From NCBI RefSeq assembly GCF_000192795.1, contig NW_007360670.1, positions 1 to 22,902 on the forward strand: a DNA stretch of 22,902 nt. Reading direction: 5' to 3'. The stretch is from Vavraia culicis subsp. floridensis. Taxonomy: Eukaryota; Microsporidia; Pleistophoridae. Both the position numbers and the translations under genes were made by a program. Under the pieces are notes generated by a model. It was not told where the DNA came from. It did not search any database and saw nothing but the letters and a program-made list of their open reading frames with translations. Positions 1 to 21,042 of this stretch are shown piece after piece (positions within the stretch are counted from its first letter, which is position 1; the number at the start of each line of letters is the position of its first letter).

Positions 1-212
1 TCCACCACGTCTAATCAAAATGCATGAAATAAATAACATATCTGCACTTTTAACTTTTGTTTGATTTCCTCAACATTGTAACAAATTACAATGGCATTCA
101 CGATATGTTGAGGTGATTTACCAGAAAAGAATAAAATATAAAGAAATGGATGTAAAAGTGAGTTTTTGGTCAATGTAACAGAACATAACATCACAATCAA
201 ATTGACGTTTTT

Positions 213-536
213 GTGAACAGTTTGTATGTTCTTATTTTCTTATCATTGACTAACATTCATTTTTCTGGAAGAAATAAAGCTATAAATAAGTTGAAAAATC
301 GATGCATCATGTATCCAGATTGTGACAATACGCCGACTGAAAAGTTTTTGGTGGAAAAGACACAATTGTTAAATCCTGGTGGTTTTGTCTGTGCTGTAGA
401 TAATCAGCTGATTGTATACCGCGGCAAAGCTTTATTTATTGATCGGACCTACGAGAGTCTGCAAAATGTTCCTGTGCTCCGTGTACAGTTCTTAACAAAG
501 CACTTCGATATTGTGCATGTTCTAAAAAAAGTATAG
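213..536 (+). pseudogene. Unassigned frame inside Helitron copy A
   Basis: This open frame of about 107 codons has a counterpart in copy B (20515-20817) with only scattered substitutions. It has no ATG at its beginning here: relative to copy B an 8-base length difference near 230-240 puts the upstream ATG out of frame, and the first in-frame ATG is about 33 codons in. The protein contains a stretch reading NPGGFVCAVDNQLIVYRGKA. I do not recognise it as the Helitron Rep domain or as any helicase motif. It could be a divergent remnant of the region between Rep and helicase, or a host fragment captured by the element. Confidence 0.45.
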
Positions 537-568
537 GGCCAAAATAATAGTACCAGTTGCAGTAAAAA

Positions 569-1685
569 ATAACCAGACAATATCTCTACACCGACATTTC
601 ATATCACTATGTGTACCAGAACAGCCGATGGGTATTGCGACAGCGGGGTGATGACAAAGTCATTACAAGATTGTATGCGGTCAGTCCAGAGGAAAAGGAG
701 AGATTCTATCTGAGAATGCTCTTGCTCAACGTGAGAGGTGCCACATCATTCGACGACTTAAGAAGTGCAAACAATGTTATATATGGCACATTCGAGGAAG
801 CAGCAATGGCAAGAAATCTTCTGCAGGATGACAATGAATGGAAGAACGTGCTGGGCGAAGCTGCAATGACAGAGACATCTGACCATATCAGAAAGCTGTT
901 CGCATACATCTGTGTGTTCAACAGACCGCATGATGCACTTGGGCTGTTCAACGACTACGTTAACGATATGTGCGATGACATCGTTTACGAGATATATGGT
1001 GATGTTGCCAACATGGCTGACAGCGAAGATCTGACGAACAGAACTATACTCACAACAAACAACGATGCTGCAAAGGAAATCAATGACAGGGTCCTTGACT
1101 TGATGATCGGCAACGAAGTAACATACACGAGTGCAGACTCTATTGTCACAGAGGACAACGATGTTGTTGCGAACTATCCGCTAGAGTTTCTCAACAAGCA
1201 GCAGCCTTCAGGATTGCCACCGCACAAGTTAGTTCTAAAAAGGGTGCGTTGATAATGCTATTGCGCAACCTTGATCCAGCCAATGGCCTGCTCAATGGCA
1301 CACACCTGGTGGTTGAAAACTCCACACAAACTTCATCATAGCTACTATTGTAACCGGATCCAGGAAAGGTAGCAGGGCAGTTATACCAAGGATCGACATG
1401 GCACCGAGCGAGACACAGCTGCCATTCATACTCAAGAGAAGACAGTTTCTTGTTCTTCTTTCGTTTGCGATGACAATCCACAAGTCACAGGGTCAGTCAT
1501 TTGACAAGGTAGGTGTTTATCTGCACAGCCCAGTCTTTGTGCATGGTCAGTTGTATGTAGCTCTGTCGAGAGTGCGCTATGCAAACGGTCTAAGGGTGTA
1601 TGTTGCTGACAATGGAGACCAAGGAAAGCATGAGAATGGTAAAGTATACACAAGAAATGTTGTGTACAATGAGCTACTAGAATGA
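569..1685 (+). pseudogene. Helitron helicase remnant, internally deleted and twice frameshifted (copy A)
   Basis: The first part (569-1252) reads as the segment that precedes the PIF1-type helicase in Helitrons; recognisable are RQYLYTDI, RWVLRQRGDDKVI, ERFYLRMLLLNV and GATSFDDLRS. Around 975-995 it jumps directly to the region after the motor (EIYGDVANM, then NRTILTTNNDAAKEIND). The roughly 200-250 residues that carry Walker A, Walker B and helicase motifs Ia to III are therefore missing. A one-base loss at the G-run near 1242-1244 breaks the frame, and a second one-base loss near 1310-1335, not present in copy B, breaks it again. The last part (1398-1685) keeps motif V (TIHKSQGQSFDKV) and motif VI (YVALSRVR). 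GTG rather than ATG lies at 611, so no functional start is evident. Confidence 0.88.
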
Positions 1686-1793
1686 AAGTGATTTATTGAT
1701 TTTGTAACCATGGAACAGTTGGTAGAAAGGAATGACCTGATGTTGCGGTTATATTCAAAAGCGCTATTTTGATCTACTATCCATTCATACACC

Positions 1794-1823
1794 CGTTTTT
1801 GAAAAACGTGACAGCACAGCTAA
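1794..1823 (+). repeat. Helitron 3' terminal hairpin and CTAA end (copy A)
   Basis: CGTTTTTGAAAAACG at 1794-1808 is self-complementary about a central G. Fifteen bases follow, ending in CTAA at 1820-1823, then T. Copy B has the same arrangement at the same spacing, with one hairpin base changed so that pairing is kept as a G-U wobble, and TTAG in place of CTAA. This is the expected 3' signature of Helitrons. Confidence 0.7.
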
Positions 1824-2239: not shown

Positions 2240-3787
2240 ATGGAAAATAAACCAACGATGAAGATGATGAGAGAAATTCTTGCCAGCAGTCGGAATATTA
2301 ATGGTCTTAAACTCAATAGTCTTGTGCAAATTGATATTACCATTGATTTTATAAATCTTTACCACCAATATCCACAAGAAACCGAAAAAATTGTGACGAA
2401 TTATGCGAACGAAATAAAAATGTATAGCTATCACATAAAAAGGCTGATATTAAGGCACAGGTTCAACTACAACAATCCCTGTATAGGATACGACGCGTGC
2501 AACACGGGAAACTGTTCTTCAAAACAACCTTGCCATACAGCATGTGGAGATGAGACAACAGAGAGAAAAGAAAGATATTGTCTGAGTCCGGTTTTAAAAA
2601 TCAATTACACCTTCAGAAATACAAATAGCAGTATCAGGAAATTGAATTTGCGCAATTGTTTTAGGCATGCAGACAGCAACGAACTATTTTTTGTTGAGGG
2701 ACAGTTCTTTCTGTTTCAGATAAACACAAATACCTTGTTTAAATCATACCGATGCACCAACAAATTGTGTAGGAGCCCCGACACAATATTGGAAATCAGC
2801 AATTTCTTGTACTATTATAACAATGAGGCAGATGCTATTGAGCTAATATTTTGCAAAAAGCATTCAAAGGAATGTAGAGCATGTCTTACATCCTTACAAG
2901 AAGCTTTTAGTGAGCGAAAGATTGAAAAAAGTTACTATTTTAGGTTAAGCGAAGGATCATCTGTACAGAAATGTGTCACAGTCTGTGGTGTCGATTACAC
3001 AAATGATGAGTTTATCGGTGCCCTTGGGCATTTTATAAGAGGATCAGGTGGTGATCTTCTATTTTGTGTGTTGAAAACATGGAGAAAGCACCAACAGATA
3101 CGTAGTATAAGATCCTCAAGCGTAGAATTAACAACCAAATATATTTTTGATGGTATAAAGAACAGCATATGTGCACAGGATCAGCTGATAACAATCATTC
3201 TAAGCATTCAGCTCTTCAATAATCTTAAAATACTCATTTATACTTTCGATGTAACCGGTGTCAGCAGGATCGCCAACAATTTTTTGGCAGTTCACCATAT
3301 GAAAATCAAACTTTTTTACACAAATGTAGTAAATTCTGGTGGTATTTACATCAACAGCCTGTCAGAGTATAAAAATAGGATTGAAGAGAATGTCGATCTC
3401 ATGTTTATATTCAGAAAAAATGACGAACTGAACTTATGCTACAAATACCAAAAAAAGATGGACAAACAAAAGTTTATTTATGAAGAGAGTATTACAGTCG
3501 ATCAAAACAGCTTATCATCACGCTTAGATACCTATTTATCTGCCAATTCATGTGTAAAACACGATATTAGTAGCATACTTCTTCAATATCTCGATTCTCA
3601 ACTTTTTACCGAGTTGCAAACCGCTGCACTGCGTATTTACCTCAAGAACAAGAAAAAAATTAACATTTCAAGAATTATCTACACACTTAATAATTTGATC
3701 ATTGGTTATCGAAACCTTATAAATAGAAATATCGATAAAACCGATCTCCATTTGATAGAAAAGCTTGTCATCGACAAGTTAATTTGA
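2240..3787 (+). CDS. Degenerate MCM-family protein (predicted pseudo-ATPase)
   Basis: A 515-residue protein that follows the MCM helicase layout. Residues about 25-62 resemble the MCM A-domain. Residues about 118-172 resemble the OB fold, with an IRKL segment and VEGQFFLF before the zinc-binding site. Cysteines C172, C177, C212 and C215 could form that site. Residues about 300-345 match the MCM sequence before and across Walker A, but the catalytic lysine position is V341. GGIYINS at 367-373 sits where Walker B (GGICCIDE) should be, with Asn and Ser instead of Asp and Glu. VDLMFIF at 385-391 matches the SRFDLIF block, with the arginine finger replaced by N384. Residues about 474-510 match the C-terminal lid. 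The protein is shorter than typical MCMs because the segments around the beta hairpins are missing. A cysteine-rich insert (C81, C87, C92, C98, C102, C114) is extra. By analogy with MCMDC2, it may act in DNA repair or meiosis as a non-catalytic partner. The family assignment is by eye; the role is inference. Confidence 0.55.
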   Translation: MENKPTMKMMREILASSRNINGLKLNSLVQIDITIDFINLYHQYPQETEKIVTNYANEIKMYSYHIKRLILRHRFNYNNPCIGYDACNTGNCSSKQPCHTACGDETTERKERYCLSPVLKINYTFRNTNSSIRKLNLRNCFRHADSNELFFVEGQFFLFQINTNTLFKSYRCTNKLCRSPDTILEISNFLYYYNNEADAIELIFCKKHSKECRACLTSLQEAFSERKIEKSYYFRLSEGSSVQKCVTVCGVDYTNDEFIGALGHFIRGSGGDLLFCVLKTWRKHQQIRSIRSSSVELTTKYIFDGIKNSICAQDQLITIILSIQLFNNLKILIYTFDVTGVSRIANNFLAVHHMKIKLFYTNVVNSGGIYINSLSEYKNRIEENVDLMFIFRKNDELNLCYKYQKKMDKQKFIYEESITVDQNSLSSRLDTYLSANSCVKHDISSILLQYLDSQLFTELQTAALRIYLKNKKKINISRIIYTLNNLIIGYRNLINRNIDKTDLHLIEKLVIDKLI

Positions 3788-5420: not shown

Positions 5421-6432
5421 TTAATAAAAAAACCTGCACAGTGCTGTGAGTACACTGGTACTGTGGATATAGAAGATAAAACGTGACAAAAAAAATAATT
5501 TAATCTTCACTTTTATTTCTATTCTTGACAACAGATAACATGCTCTTATAATTTCATTAAAATCAGGATAACATCAATTATGCGTGTATACTCGTCGGAA
5601 CTATTAATTCATAATTAAATAATTGAGCTAAAAAATGCTAATTTTACTAAGAAGGAAAATCATTCTTCTACAGCATTATCAAAATAAAGTTCAAAATTTG
5701 ATGTAAAATAAGCTAAACCTTTTTATTTTATTCCGTTTTGCCACCTTAACCATCATTTGGTGACATGGCAAACCATGTTCGCTAATTCTGTGTTCAAATA
5801 AACGTTTATTAAGATCCATATCTGTTTTGTAAATTTTTTTAGCACTTTACGAACAAAGTTGTAATTTTGATGCATTAAAAAAAGATTTATTAGTTTATAA
5901 AATATTACTGCTCCTGGCTGTAATTGCATGTACAATGACAAATTCATCAATTAAATATATGAACATGCACAAACATACCTTTAATATTTGTTAAGATCAA
6001 GTCTAATGCCTCTACGCATTTTTTCCTTTCAAAACGAAGTGCTTATACTTAATGAGCGCAATAAACCTAAATACTAACCAGTTGCTAACAGGAGCCTACA
6101 AGTTCTATAAATCACAAACATCCGCTGTTAGTTTTTACTTGTTACTTTTTCCGTAGTACCATCATGTCATTTATCATTCAGACGCTGTCATTTAACAGAT
6201 TGAACGCCAAAATTAAAAGAAATAAGGTACCGAAGTGCAAGTATAAAATAAAAAGCAATCTCAATTTTACTTTTCTATTTAACCAAATAATATTTTTTCC
6301 AAACTTTCAGCAAGTAAATTAGCCCGAAAATAGATAAAACATTTGTTATAAATAGTTTCTACTGAATGAAACTTATCAATCACATAAATGAGCTTTTTTT
6401 TTTTTGCGACCGTTGTTTTTAGCACCATATCA
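5421..6432. other. Divergent intergenic region, about 1 kb
   Basis: It lies between the divergently transcribed coiled-coil and pantothenate kinase genes. It is AT-rich with long A and T runs, including 12 T residues at 6394-6405 just before the kinase start. A minus-strand frame at 5753-5950 is short and unsupported. I see no RNA gene. Confidence 0.5.
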
Positions 6433-7305
6433 ATGATTGGTATCGATTTCGGTGGATCACTTATAAAATGCGTTGAGATCGTTGGCAATGAGACAAAATT
6501 TACTGTAATGAAAATAAAGGATGTTGTTGAGCTGTCGAATATGCTTAAACAAAAAAGTGGAGCAAAATTGATGTTGACTGGCGGTGGTTCGTACAAGCAC
6601 AATTTTTTGCCGCATGAAAATATTTTGCCGGAAATGGAGGCATTGTATTTAGGGTATCAGTACATTTTAGAACACGACATACAACAGTTCTACACGTACA
6701 ATCCGATCAGTATGAATAAGAACAAAGTCGCGCGGACCAATGAATGCATTCTGGTAAACATTGGGTCAGGCATTTCGATAATAAGATTAACGCAAAACAA
6801 TTTTGCAAGGTTGGGAGGTACTACTATCGGAGGAGGCACATTTGCTGGACTGGGTTGGCTGATTTGCAAGGAAGAAAACATCGACAAAATGTTTGATATG
6901 GCTTCGTTGGGTAACAACTTTGGCGTTGATCTGTCTATTAATGATATCTATGGAAATTGTGACACCAGAAATCTTCTTGGGCTTTCTAACAATCTTGTTG
7001 CAAGTTCCTTTGGCAAAGTCTCCCTTTCTTCCGATATCGAGTTCAGCAAATATGATATTCTATCATCTCTGCTCTCCCTAATAGTGAATAATGTCTGTTT
7101 GATGGCCATAAGCCATGCAGAAAAACAGAACATGGCACGAATTGTGTTTTCAGGCTGCTTTAGTCTGCAAGACGTTGTCCAAAAACGAATAGTGTATTGC
7201 TTCCACGCACTCAGAAAGACATCTATAGAACCAGTTTTTATAGAACATGCGGGGCATTTGGGAGCATTCGGATGTATCAACTGGATAATGCACAACAATC
7301 GGTAG
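6433..7305 (+). CDS. Pantothenate kinase (eukaryotic type II)
   Basis: This enzyme phosphorylates pantothenate with ATP, the first and usually controlling step of coenzyme A synthesis, in the cytosol. The frame is open from an ATG at 6388, but the extra 15 residues come from a poly-T tract and read as a phenylalanine run. The start at 6433 begins with MIGIDFGGSLIK, the first phosphate-binding loop of the family, giving 290 residues. Further family blocks are LTGGGSYKH (49-56), LPEMEAL with E67 at the catalytic glutamate position, ILVNIGSGISI (106-116), the RLGGTTIGGGTFAGLG block near 127-142, ASSFGK, and a C-terminal NNVCLMAISHA followed by IVFSGCF. The core is complete but short compared with yeast or animal enzymes, lacking an N-terminal extension. 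An AATAAA follows at 7350-7355. Confidence 0.92.
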   Translation: MIGIDFGGSLIKCVEIVGNETKFTVMKIKDVVELSNMLKQKSGAKLMLTGGGSYKHNFLPHENILPEMEALYLGYQYILEHDIQQFYTYNPISMNKNKVARTNECILVNIGSGISIIRLTQNNFARLGGTTIGGGTFAGLGWLICKEENIDKMFDMASLGNNFGVDLSINDIYGNCDTRNLLGLSNNLVASSFGKVSLSSDIEFSKYDILSSLLSLIVNNVCLMAISHAEKQNMARIVFSGCFSLQDVVQKRIVYCFHALRKTSIEPVFIEHAGHLGAFGCINWIMHNNR

Positions 7306-7873: not shown

Positions 7874-8659
7874 TTATTCTGTCTTATAAAGCTCGTTGAT
7901 ACGTGTATTATAAGATCCGCATTTGGCGCACTTGTTGTATAGAAATGTGTAGATAGTCTTGCTCACAGACTGACAGTCGAAGCACGATACCTGGCACATG
8001 TAGTTTTGTCGTTTGGCATTTAGGCCAACATTATTGCTCAGTATGCAATCGATTCGTTCGTTCAGGACCTTTGTATCTCCGGCCGATTTCAGACACACGG
8101 GACACTGAAACGATGATTCCTTGTAAATTTTGAAGCAGGCAAAGTGGATTGAATGGCCACAGTTCAGCAGCACCACATCGTTCACACTTTCAAACATAAA
8201 CTCTGCGCAAATAGGACAGGTGCTTTTCAGTGTGTTCTCTACATGGTTGTGGTTGTTCAGCAGTTCTCTGGGCAGGCATGCGTTGCATCCAGTGCAGTGG
8301 AAGAAGTTCTTCTTATTCCCCACTCTACAAACCTTGCACTGCTTGCAATGGAATACACCAAGCGAATCCGTCCAAAACTTGCAAATTTTGCAGAAATAAT
8401 TTGCCATTTTTACCTTGCACATGACACAGTATTGGCTTGCTCCTTGTATCATTCCGCAACACAAACACAGCATATACTTCGTTCTGTGCCTAATCATTTT
8501 ATGGTCCTCGTTATGGTTGTGACAAAGTCTACATGGATATGTGCGCTTACAGCAGTCTGTAATGATCAAACACTTTCTTCTGTAATGTTTGCATCCAAAA
8601 CTTTCAATCTTCGCCATGAACAAAGGAGAAGTAAATTTTTTAGTATTTGTAAAGGACAT
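7874..8659 (-). CDS. CHY/CTCHY/RING zinc-finger protein, likely E3 ubiquitin ligase of the RCHY1 (Pirh2) family
   Basis: At 261 residues it matches the RCHY1 family in size and domain order. A CHY-type zinc finger fills residues about 21-90 (FGCKHYRRKC, then paired CxxC and HxH motifs). A CTCHY finger follows at about 88-129 (FCKICKFW, FHCKQCKVCR, FHCTGCNACL). A RING-H2 finger lies at 148-189 (CPIC, NCGHSIHFAC, CPVC). A C-terminal zinc ribbon uses C226, C229, C244 and C247. Family members attach ubiquitin to targets through the RING. Every zinc ligand pattern I can check is intact, so the protein should fold. The first ATG at 8659 is preceded by an AT-rich TATA-like TTTATAATAA at about -30; an alternative start at Met15 (8615-8617) would keep all domains. 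The substrate cannot be told from the sequence. Confidence 0.92.
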   Translation of the reverse strand: MSFTNTKKFTSPLFMAKIESFGCKHYRRKCLIITDCCKRTYPCRLCHNHNEDHKMIRHRTKYMLCLCCGMIQGASQYCVMCKVKMANYFCKICKFWTDSLGVFHCKQCKVCRVGNKKNFFHCTGCNACLPRELLNNHNHVENTLKSTCPICAEFMFESVNDVVLLNCGHSIHFACFKIYKESSFQCPVCLKSAGDTKVLNERIDCILSNNVGLNAKRQNYMCQVSCFDCQSVSKTIYTFLYNKCAKCGSYNTRINELYKTE

Positions 8660-16521: not shown

Positions 16522-17982
16522 CTAGCAGATCGAAAAAGAGCTCTTTTCTACCACATAAACGTGTGAGAACTCCAATAAAGGCTTAGGCACCTTGACTAAA
16601 TCAATATCAAACAGCTTCTGCACCGCCCACGCCTGGTAGAACACAGTCTCGATACTTTTGAGCCGAGTATCGGGAAACAGAGAAGGAGCTATGCACCGCA
16701 CCAGGTTGGGAATGGGCATGTCGTTCTCATCTTTGTGCTGATCAATCTCTTTGAACATTTCTATCAAGCTTATAAGAAACTTCCTTTTATCGCCGACAAA
16801 GCAAAACGGGAGATAAAAAAGCAAATAGTTGATAGATGGTGACGACTTGTGCTTGGCAGTCTCATACAGCGAGTCAAGTATATCGAATGAGAAAATTCCA
16901 TTCACCTTTTTCTTCAGGTAAATCTTGAAAAATGCAACTGTGTTCCTCACATCCGTGGTATCGAGATCGAACGTTTCACCAGCCATGAACCTGTCATACA
17001 AAAGCAGACTCGCGCGGTAGTCACCTGAGCACCTGAATATGCCGTGATAATTAGCGCGCTTTGTTTTTATAAAATCCATGATTTTGAATATGAACGGGTG
17101 TATGTGGCTCGTCTCTGTCCTATCTTCATTCCCAAATTTCATCATTTTTTTGAGAAACGAGAGTTTGTTCCCAGACACAGCGGAGGAGAGCATAAATACC
17201 GCATAGCGGTATAGCTCATACTTCTCAACAGGCGAAATATCATCGTAGCGTATGAATTTATCCTGATAATTTTTAAACGTGATATGCTCGACTTTAAACT
17301 TGCTTCTGAACCTGTGATCAGCGATCCGATCATTTCCTGGCGCTATTTTAGTTTTCCCGCTCACATTGGACACTACGCGCCGCACGAATCGACTCATTTC
17401 ACAGACTCTACTGCTAGCAGCATGGGCATCGCCCTCATCGCTATTCTCGACCGATTGTCGCTTTGGTTGTTTACTTTCAGCACACACTTCTTTCTCAGAT
17501 ATCACTACTCCTTTAGGCGCTCCACTATACTCATTGTCAGCTGCTCCATCGCTCCTATCGGTATCTATACTGTCTGTTCTCTCCGTTTTAGGCACCTTCC
17601 CACACACGTCATTGTTCATTTGCCGCTTTTTGTCAATTATTTGTCCTATCTCTCGCTCCTCTTGATTTTTCCCACACTCACCATTGTCTTCTCCCTTCCA
17701 TATCCCTTCCTCCTCGCCATTTTTTGCTGTACTTTCATCATATACCTGAATTGCACATTCCTTCCCCCTCCCACACGCCCATTTTTTCTCCATTCCTAGC
17801 TCACTTCGCACACCCACTGACCCTATGTCACTCCCGAAACTATCTGAATAAAACACACTTCCATACTTACCGACGGTATCATCCTCAACAACTTCCATCC
17901 CAATCTCATTCTCCAATTTATCGAGTACATTATCCGTCCCGTGCGCTCTACTTACTTCTGCAATTTTGTCTTCTTGTCCCAT
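16522..17982 (-). CDS. RhoGAP-domain protein
   Basis: A 486-residue protein whose C-terminal part is a RhoGAP domain, which speeds GTP hydrolysis by Rho-family GTPases and so controls actin and polarity. The domain runs from about 292 to 460. GIFRCSG at 314-320 carries the arginine finger R317. FFKIYLKKKV (351-360) matches the conserved LLKxYLRxLP helix, with Lys where Arg is usual. LLFYLP (387-392) and IPNLVRCIAPSLF (424-436) match the later helices and NLAxxxAPxLF block. Residues 1-220 are low in complexity, acidic and Gly/Ser/Glu/Lys-rich with no clear domain, and are probably disordered. Their coding strand is strongly purine-rich, unlike the flanking genes. CCC lies 8-10 bases before the ATG. 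No second domain (PH, SH3, LIM) is evident, so membrane targeting must depend on the N-terminal half or partners. Confidence 0.92.
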   Translation of the reverse strand: MGQEDKIAEVSRAHGTDNVLDKLENEIGMEVVEDDTVGKYGSVFYSDSFGSDIGSVGVRSELGMEKKWACGRGKECAIQVYDESTAKNGEEEGIWKGEDNGECGKNQEEREIGQIIDKKRQMNNDVCGKVPKTERTDSIDTDRSDGAADNEYSGAPKGVVISEKEVCAESKQPKRQSVENSDEGDAHAASSRVCEMSRFVRRVVSNVSGKTKIAPGNDRIADHRFRSKFKVEHITFKNYQDKFIRYDDISPVEKYELYRYAVFMLSSAVSGNKLSFLKKMMKFGNEDRTETSHIHPFIFKIMDFIKTKRANYHGIFRCSGDYRASLLLYDRFMAGETFDLDTTDVRNTVAFFKIYLKKKVNGIFSFDILDSLYETAKHKSSPSINYLLFYLPFCFVGDKRKFLISLIEMFKEIDQHKDENDMPIPNLVRCIAPSLFPDTRLKSIETVFYQAWAVQKLFDIDLVKVPKPLLEFSHVYVVEKSSFSIC

Positions 17983-19242: not shown

Positions 19243-19257
19243 CGCTTTTCAAAAACG
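19243..19257 (-). repeat. Helitron 3' terminal hairpin (copy B)
   Basis: CGTTTTTGAAAAGCG on the minus strand has the same position relative to the end as in copy A. The single change (A to G) keeps pairing as G-U. Confidence 0.65.
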
Positions 19258-19364
19258 GGTGATGAATGGGTAGTATATCAAGACTGCGCTTTTAAATGTG
19301 ACTAGGACATCAGGTCATTCCTTTCTACTAACTGTTCTGTGGTTACAAAATCAATAAATCACTT

Positions 19365-20482
19365 TCATTCCAATAGCTCATTGTATACAACATTTCTTGT
19401 GTATACTTTACCATTCTCATGCTTTCCTTGGTCTCCATTGTTAGCAACATACACCCTTAGACCTTTTGCATAGCGCACTCTCGACAAAGCTACGTACAAC
19501 TGACCATGCACAAAGACTGGGCTGTGCAGATAAACACCTACCTTGTCAAATGACTGACCCTGTGACTTGTGGATTGTCATCGCAAACGAAAGAAGAACAA
19601 GAAACTGTCTTCTCTTGAGTATGAACGGCAGCTGTGTCTCGCTCGGTGCCATGTCGATCCTTGGTATCACTGCCCTACTACCTCTCCTGGATCCGGTTAC
19701 AATAGTAGCTATGATGAAGTTTGAGTGAAGTTCATCAACCACCGGGCGTGTGCCATTGAGCAGGCCATTGGCTGGATCAAGGTTGCGCAATAGAATTATC
19801 AACGCACCCTTTTTAGAACTAACTTGTGCGGTGGCATTCCTGAAGGCTGCTGCTTGTTGAAAAACTCTAGCAGATAGTTTGCAACAACATCATTGTCCTC
19901 TGTGACAATAGAGTCTGCACTCGTGTATGTCACTTCGTTGCCGATCATCAAGTCAAGGACCCTATCATTGATTTCCTTTGCAGCATCGTTGTTTGTTGTG
20001 AGTATAGTTCTGTTCGTCAGATCTTCGCTGTCAGCCATGTTGGCAACATCACCATATATCTCGTTAACGATGTCATCGCACATATCGTCAACATAGTCGT
20101 TGAACAGCCTAAGTGCATCATGCGGTCTGTTGAACACACAGATGTATGCGAACAGCTTTCTGATGTGGTCAGATGTCTCTGTCATTGCAGCTTCGCCCAG
20201 CACGTTCTTCCATTCACTGTCATCCTGCAAAAGATTTCTTGCCCTTGTTGCTTCCTCGAATGTGCCATATACAACATTGTTGGCACTTCTTAAGTCGTCG
20301 AATGACGTGGCACCTCTCACATTGAGCAAGAGCATTCTCAGATAGAATCTCTCCTTTTCCTCTGGATTGACCGCATACAATCTTGTAATGACTTTGTCCT
20401 CGCCCCGCTGACGCAATACCCATCGGCTGTTCGTGTACACATAGTGATATGGAATGTCGGTGTAGAGATATTGTCTGATTAT
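19365..20482 (-). pseudogene. Helitron helicase remnant, internally deleted, one frameshift (copy B)
   Basis: Reading on the minus strand, the pre-helicase segment (20482-19799) carries RQYLYTDIPYHYVY, RWVLRQRGEDKVI and GATSFDDLRS, then jumps to NEIYGDVANM and NRTILTTNND without any Walker A or Walker B motif. The frame breaks at the same G-run as in copy A. The next frame (19802-19365) continues through ILLRNLDPANGLLNGT to motif V (TIHKSQGQSFDKV) and motif VI (YVALSRVR). This copy keeps an intact frame across the place where copy A has its second frameshift, so it is the less decayed of the two. Confidence 0.88.
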
Positions 20483-20514
20483 TTTTTACTGCTACTGGTA
20501 CTATTATTTTGGCC

Positions 20515-20817
20515 CTATACTTTTTTTAGAACATGCACAATATCGAAGTGCTTTTTTAAGAACTGTGCACAGAGCACAGGAACATTTTGCAGACTCTCGT
20601 AGATCCGATCTATAAATAAAGCTTTGCCGCGGTAGACAATCAGCTGATTATCTACAACACAGACAAAACCACCAGGATTTAACAATTGTGTTTTTTCCAC
20701 CAAAAACTTTTCAGTCGGCGTATTGTCAAAATCTGGAAACATAATGCATCGACTTCTCAACTTATTTATAGTTTTATTTCTTCCAGAAAAATGAATGTTA
20801 GTCAATGATGAGAACAT
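20515..20817 (-). pseudogene. Unassigned frame inside Helitron copy B
   Basis: A 100-codon counterpart of the frame at 213-536. Here an ATG opens it (MFSSLTNIHF). The reading frame is kept over nearly all of its length in both copies. No family is recognised. It ends about 30 bases before the helicase remnant frame begins. Confidence 0.45.
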
Positions 20818-21042
20818 ACAAAATGTTCACCAAATTGTCAATTTGATTGTGATGTTATGTTCTGTTACATTGACCAAAAACTCACTTTTACATCCATTTC
20901 TTTGTATTTTATTCTTTTTCTGGTAAATAATCTAAATATATTGTAAATGTCATCGTAATTTGTTACAATGTTGAGGAAGTCAAACAAAAGTTAAAAGTGC
21001 TGATATGTTATTTATTTCATGCACTTTGATTAGACGTGGTGG

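What the first reader, a model, noticed from the sequence alone, without database searches (positions are those of the whole stretch)
2240..3787. MCM-fold protein with all ATPase residues replaced
The 515-residue protein follows the MCM order: A-domain, OB fold, zinc cysteines (C172, C177, C212, C215), AAA+ core, C-terminal lid. At the Walker A position the lysine is V341, at Walker B the acidic pair is N372/S373 in GGIYINS, and at the arginine finger (SRFDLIF block) it is N384. The helix-2 insert and presensor hairpin segments are missing. This suggests a pseudo-ATPase comparable to MCMDC2, unusual in a reduced fungal-type parasite where extra MCMs are normally lost. If real, it would be a non-catalytic MCM in a lineage where none is described to my knowledge.
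Basis: partly seen in the sequence, partly recalled or inferred. Interest (0 to 1): 0.8.

Follow-up and report, generated by a model that had tools for sequence, protein, structure and literature searches.

The report
MCM9-like start, no detectable ATPase
This 515-residue protein of a likely microsporidian parasite has no ATPase domain that our searches could detect, and only a short stretch near its start resembles the DNA-repair helicase subunit MCM9, from which it is likely derived.

Summary
The gene is real: an intact 515-codon ORF with a gap-free 88% relative. No Pfam or PDB match exists up to E 10, profile comparison with MCM9 aligns only residues 31-56, and both structure predictions fail (pLDDT 33 and 38). 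The one strong signal is residues 34-55, matching the N-terminal A-domain of microsporidian MCM9 at 11.5 bits (0 of 20,000 shuffles). A weak match lies near the expected lid (p 0.01-0.09, by profile). [quoted passage not shown] The protein is likely MCM9-derived and without ATPase; 'ATPase residues replaced' cannot be claimed. Extra MCMs are not lost here: the genome holds MCM2-7, MCM8-like, MCM9 and HROB genes. A firmer disabled MCM lies elsewhere in it: its MCM9 lacks the Walker B glutamate, as do all 11 sampled members of one clade among 46 microsporidian-clade MCM9s, with Walker A lysine and arginine finger kept.

The parts
2240..3787 (+). 515-codon ORF (P0001), the gene of the finding
   Evidence: Translation; 515-aa relative P0002, 88% identical with no gap; one match in the genome
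2339..2404 (+). Residues 34-55: A-domain-like segment resembling microsporidian MCM9
   Evidence: 11.5 bits in P0001 and P0002, 0 of 20,000 shuffles and 0 of 949 genome stretches as high; hhalign aligns residues 31-56 only
2753..2884 (+). Residues 172-215: C-x4-C ... C-x2-C, possible zinc site
   Evidence: C172, C177, C212, C215 kept in P0002; C205 is His there. Zinc binding is inferred; the OB fold around it is not supported statistically
3095..3499 (+). Residues 286-420: stretch claimed as AAA+ core (V341 at 3260-3262, N372/S373, N384); no core detectable
   Evidence: No sub-profile support; global alignment chance-like
3395..3601 (+). Residues 386-454: weak match to the MCM9 arginine-finger-to-lid region
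   Evidence: 5.6 and 6.4 bits in P0001 and P0002, p 0.016 and 0.010 against 2,000 shuffles with the microsporidian rows, 0.076 and 0.043 with all rows; the best unrelated ORF reaches 7.1

Best explanation
It is an intact gene whose product likely descends from the MCM9 subunit of microsporidia, of which only the N-terminal A-domain segment is still detectable, and it would act without ATPase activity, as a binding partner or scaffold. Shown: the ORF, its gap-free relative, the A-domain match, the conserved cysteines, and that no AAA+ core was detected by sequence. Inferred: descent from MCM9. Inferred and untested: that the cysteines bind zinc, that the C-terminal helices are a remnant of the MCM lid, and that the protein contacts the MCM8-MCM9-HROB helicase, whose three genes are present in the same genome. 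In that reading the A-domain and zinc region would dock on the N-terminal ring of MCM8-MCM9 or on DNA, as a modulator rather than a motor.
Against: No Pfam or PDB hit up to E 10. hhalign gives 1.75% probability with MCM9 and 0.1% with the genome's MCM set. BLASTP of P0001 and P0002 against 56 MCM9s finds nothing below E 1.2. An unrelated zinc-finger ORF of the window outscores both on the full MCM9 HMM (11.8 against 8.0 and 9.0 bits). Outside the A-domain, alignment to MCM9 is close to that of shuffles: MAFFT-based test z about 1.1 and 0.8 after gap costs (raw score of P0002 1.8 SD up), end-to-end test of residues 58-515 p 0.19-0.44. Even residues 1-60 aligned end to end give only p 0.005-0.175. 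Three MAFFT alignments disagree on where Walker A would lie. In one semi-global test an unrelated ORF of this window has a higher z (4.3) than P0001 (2.9, rerun 2.5) or P0002 (3.7). The A-domain sub-profile of non-microsporidian MCM9s does not match. A 22-residue helical match might be convergence: over some 25,000 families a p near 1e-5 is expected in a fraction of random proteins. Even with 13 MCM9s aligned, the prediction stays at pLDDT 38.
Confidence: 0.45

Rival explanations
1. A protein restricted to this microsporidian lineage and unrelated to MCM; the A-domain resemblance is a chance or convergent match of one helical stretch.
For: One relative found in searches of about 5.8 billion proteins, which reach only proteins sharing exact 5-residue words; nothing outside residues 31-57 stands clear of controls; both models fail.
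Against: The A-domain match is above the shuffled and natural controls and is in the right place in both relatives.
Confidence: 0.4
2. One reading: a full MCM fold (A-domain, OB, zinc, AAA+ core, lid) with every ATPase residue replaced, comparable to MCMDC2.
For: A-domain match, weak lid match, cysteines in the right order, Walker A window at rank 1 of 497 in both relatives; one MAFFT alignment sets TGVS on the Walker A TGKS of MCM9.
Against: Two other MAFFT alignments set another stretch there, and shuffled sequence aligns about as well; core sub-profiles give no hit or chance-level hits; about 135 residues for a core of about 220.
Confidence: 0.1
3. An OB-fold and zinc-ribbon protein of the RPA1 C-terminal type, whose C-x4-C ... 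C-x2-C spacing it shares.
For: Cysteine spacing C172-x4-C177 and C212-x2-C215, as in RPA1 chains shown.
Against: No Rep_fac-A_C hit in P0001; the genome has its own RPA1 (L034); BLASTP of the two finds nothing below E 2.9.
Confidence: 0.05

Closest known systems
Microsporidian MCM9 (L010/P0003 in this genome)
   Same: N-terminal A-domain segment, its position, and similar length
   Different: MCM9 has detectable OB, AAA+ core and lid; P0001 has none detectable
[quoted passage not shown]
   Same: An MCM relative without conserved Walker A and B motifs would be the same idea
   Different: Their MCM domain is recognisable (PMC6922451, section 7); that of P0001 is not
Tetrahymena Mcmd1 and its partner Pamd1 (PMC6922451, section 7)
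   Same: Pamd1 in particular: a short MCM-like stretch in an otherwise orphan protein, common origin doubtful
   Different: In Pamd1 the stretch resembles the MCM domain; here it is the N-terminal A-domain

Membership tests
MCM family | N-terminal A-domain | tested here: met
   11.5 bits to microsporidian MCM9 A-domain, 0 of 20,000 shuffles; a short segment only, residues 1-60 end to end p 0.005-0.175
MCM family | OB fold (Pfam MCM_OB) | tested here: inconclusive
   No Pfam hit; sub-profile and global alignment chance-like; low-confidence models cannot exclude it
MCM family | Zinc site of two cysteine pairs in the OB fold | tested here: inconclusive
   Four cysteines kept in both relatives in the right order, but C-x4-C rather than C-x2-C first
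MCM family | AAA+ core (Pfam MCM, PF00493) | tested here: not met
   By sequence: no hit in P0001 at E up to 10; the genome search found 10 places, none in the window; core sub-profile no hit
MCM family | Walker A lysine, Walker B acidic pair, arginine finger | tested here: not met
   No matching motif; the positions claimed are not anchored
MCM family | C-terminal AAA lid | tested here: inconclusive
   p 0.01-0.09 by profile at the expected place, not above the best unrelated ORF
MCMDC2 / meiotic MCM-domain proteins | Recognisable MCM domain that lacks the ATPase motifs | tested here: inconclusive
   MCM domain not recognised; no MCMDC2 profile was compared
MCMDC2 / meiotic MCM-domain proteins | Role in meiotic recombination | not testable with these tools
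   Needs genetics
RPA1 C-terminal domain | Rep_fac-A_C domain | tested here: not met
   No hit in P0001; one place in the genome, L034

The most novel reading that the evidence does not exclude
A microsporidian clade has disarmed its MCM9 twice over: MCM9 itself lost the catalytic Walker B glutamate while keeping the arginine finger that serves MCM8, and an MCM9-derived protein shed its whole ATPase and became an ATP-free third partner of the MCM8-MCM9-HROB helicase.
Probability: 0.2. Interest if true: 0.7.

Novelty: new variant of a known kind. Interest (0 to 1): 0.35.

Why it matters
If P0001 is MCM9-derived, it would be an MCM relative reduced to its N-terminal docking part, useful for asking what the MCM8-MCM9 helicase needs besides ATP hydrolysis. 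The firmer result, the shared loss of the Walker B glutamate in MCM9 of one clade, bears on a known biochemical asymmetry: in the human enzyme the MCM8 Walker A mutant gave no unwinding and the MCM9 mutant only moderately reduced it (PMC11055865, passages). A clade that gave up the MCM9 site and kept the MCM9 arginine finger would be a natural version of that experiment.

Tried and rejected
Rejected: RPA1-like identity. Rejected: P0001 as HROB, since the one HROB match lies on another contig, C15. Tried without gain: a second protein search with the two-row alignment found nothing new. Semi-global PSSM alignment, a collinear block chain (P0001 z about 2.3, P0002 about 3.3; of 150 shuffles the best exceeds P0001 but not P0002) and a MAFFT-based control did not clearly separate P0001 from chance. 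My first impression, that OB and Walker regions align well by eye, did not survive.

Structure searches: the model made with 13 MCM9s gives MCM chains on top, but at E 0.003 or more and TM about 0.15, and the alignment biases it. The model made without MCM sequences gives no MCM among the 50 rows shown of each search; with pLDDT 33 this says little.

Limits: 40 ORFs of 250 residues or more from 20 stretches of 10 kb served as natural controls, plus window ORFs; one search scored 46 of these, one of them the query gene itself. A3 holds P0003 and 55 of the 120 proteins listed, which itself listed 120 of 4572; of the best 46 hits only the partial P0010 was left out. No DNA of P0002 was available, so no dN/dS. 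Names MCM2 to MCM8 for this genome's genes are recalled from motifs and elimination; MCM9 rests on names.

Full report
What is there. Window 2240-3787 (+) is an intact ORF of 515 codons, with one match in the genome G000. A search of about 5.8 billion proteins, limited to those sharing 5-residue words, finds one relative, P0002, 515 residues and 88% identical without a gap; 61 positions differ. So the gene is real. The genome is microsporidian by inference: its MCM9 falls inside a clade of 46 rows (100/100) that contains MCM9s named for Encephalitozoon, Ordospora, Nosema and others. The gene lies between two inverted copies of a dispersed repeat.

Is it an MCM? No Pfam family and no PDB sequence matches up to E 10. 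Profile comparison with the genome's eight MCM proteins gives 0.1% probability; with 56 MCM9 proteins it aligns residues 31-56 only, at 1.75%. On the full MCM9 HMM, P0001 and P0002 score 8.0 and 9.0 bits, above 300 shuffles (best 6.9) but below a zinc-finger ORF of the window (11.8). I then cut the MCM9 profile into sub-profiles. The A-domain sub-profile (MCM9 residues 8-60) matches P0001 34-55 and P0002 34-57 at 11.5 bits; 0 of 20,000 shuffles and 0 of 949 six-frame stretches from 200 kb of the genome score as high. With all 56 rows, 1 of 20,000 shuffles does; with 7 clade members, 6; with the microsporidian rows outside that clade (8.3 bits), 3; the non-microsporidian set does not match there. 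The profile stays at or below 1.2 bits on the rest of 56 MCM9s. BLASTP against the 56 finds nothing below E 1.2. The arginine-finger-to-lid sub-profile matches 386-454 at p 0.016 and 0.010 with microsporidian rows, 0.076 and 0.043 with all rows, below the best unrelated ORF. OB, core, Walker A and Walker B sub-profiles give chance-level hits or none.

Controls on alignment by eye. One MAFFT alignment sets P0001 on MCM9 in an attractive way, TGVS on TGKS included; two others put a different stretch on Walker A. In a MAFFT-based test 200 shuffles score 115 +/- 32 where P0001 scores 137 and P0002 172; after gap costs z is about 1.1 and 0.8. [quoted passage not shown] End-to-end alignment of segments gives p 0.08-0.59 against shuffles for OB, core and the whole rest; 0.005-0.175 for residues 1-60; and 0.04-0.20 for the lid and finger-to-lid segments, which beat 98-99.7% of natural fragments but only 80-96% of shuffles, so part of that signal is amino-acid composition.

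Structure. AlphaFold2 on the two relatives gives pLDDT 33 and pTM 0.26. With residues 120-515 and 13 MCM9s, an alignment chosen to favour the MCM reading, it gives 38 and 0.23; ten-residue means are 47-61 in the putative zinc and OB part (fragment residues 41-110), 47-54 in the last 60 residues, and 25-41 between. Neither model can decide the fold.

Reading. The likely explanation is a protein descended from MCM9 that keeps the A-domain segment and has lost a detectable ATPase. The claim of an MCM fold with every ATPase residue replaced needs an AAA+ core that no test here finds.

The premise. The genome search for Pfam MCM returned ten places, nine above the cut-off: eight distinct genes and a second, shortened copy of one. 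By motif and elimination (recalled) these are MCM2-7, an MCM8-like gene and MCM9. A HROB match over its cut-off is there too; HROB promotes the human MCM8-9 helicase (PMC11055865, passages). MCM8 and MCM9 of Encephalitozoon were reported in 2009 (PMC2667178, passages).

A firmer disabled MCM nearby. In P0003, this genome's MCM9, the Walker B reads CCIDAFD where most have CCIDEF. Of 56 MCM9 rows, 44 have the glutamate and 12 do not. Eleven of the 12 form one clade within the 46 microsporidian-clade rows (support 99/94); the label needs 2 changes on the tree against 11.1 in shuffles; P0050 in this clade and P0060 outside it have long branches. The twelfth, P0060, has aspartate. All 11 keep the Walker A lysine, the arginine finger and the sensor-2 arginine, and the MCM8-like protein of this genome keeps GDPGLGKS, CIDEFDKL and SRFDL. 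In human MCM8-9 the MCM8 site is more critical for unwinding than the MCM9 site (PMC11055865, passages). The pattern fits a helicase in which MCM9 no longer hydrolyses ATP but still serves the MCM8 site; hydrolysis was not tested, and only one MCM8 of this clade was seen. In four paper searches (one search listed 10 of 37) no title or abstract start shown reports this; of those papers I saw passages of four and one whole section.

Noticed in passing
L010 743-2383 (G000:C4, MCM9, P0003) and P0007, P0008, P0009, P0016, P0018, P0044, P0047, P0050, P0051, P0052: Walker B glutamate of MCM9 replaced by A, T, S, C, N or G in all 11 sampled members of one microsporidian clade, with Walker A lysine and arginine finger kept. 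The partial P0010 also reads IDSF.
   Followed up: yes
window 2-1804 and 19246-21042: Inverted copies, 91-96% complementary, of a dispersed repeat that carries a 178-aa ORF; 15 matches to that ORF listed in the genome, the two window copies included, five with stops inside. The gene of the finding lies between them.
   Followed up: partly
L007 and L008 (G000:C1 and G000:C32): Two nearly identical copies of one MCM gene (MCM3 by recall); the second, 556-aa frame departs near its end and lacks the C-terminal part. Duplication or assembly effect.
   Followed up: no
P0014: An MCM9 filed under the snail Biomphalaria pfeifferi groups with microsporidian MCM9s beside P0011, so that snail assembly likely holds microsporidian DNA.
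   Followed up: no
window 6388-7305 (+), 7874-8659 (-), 16522-17982 (-): Neighbouring genes with clear Pfam domains: pantothenate kinase (Fumble), CHY/RING zinc finger, RhoGAP; the other five of eight ORFs scanned have no match above cut-off.
   Followed up: no
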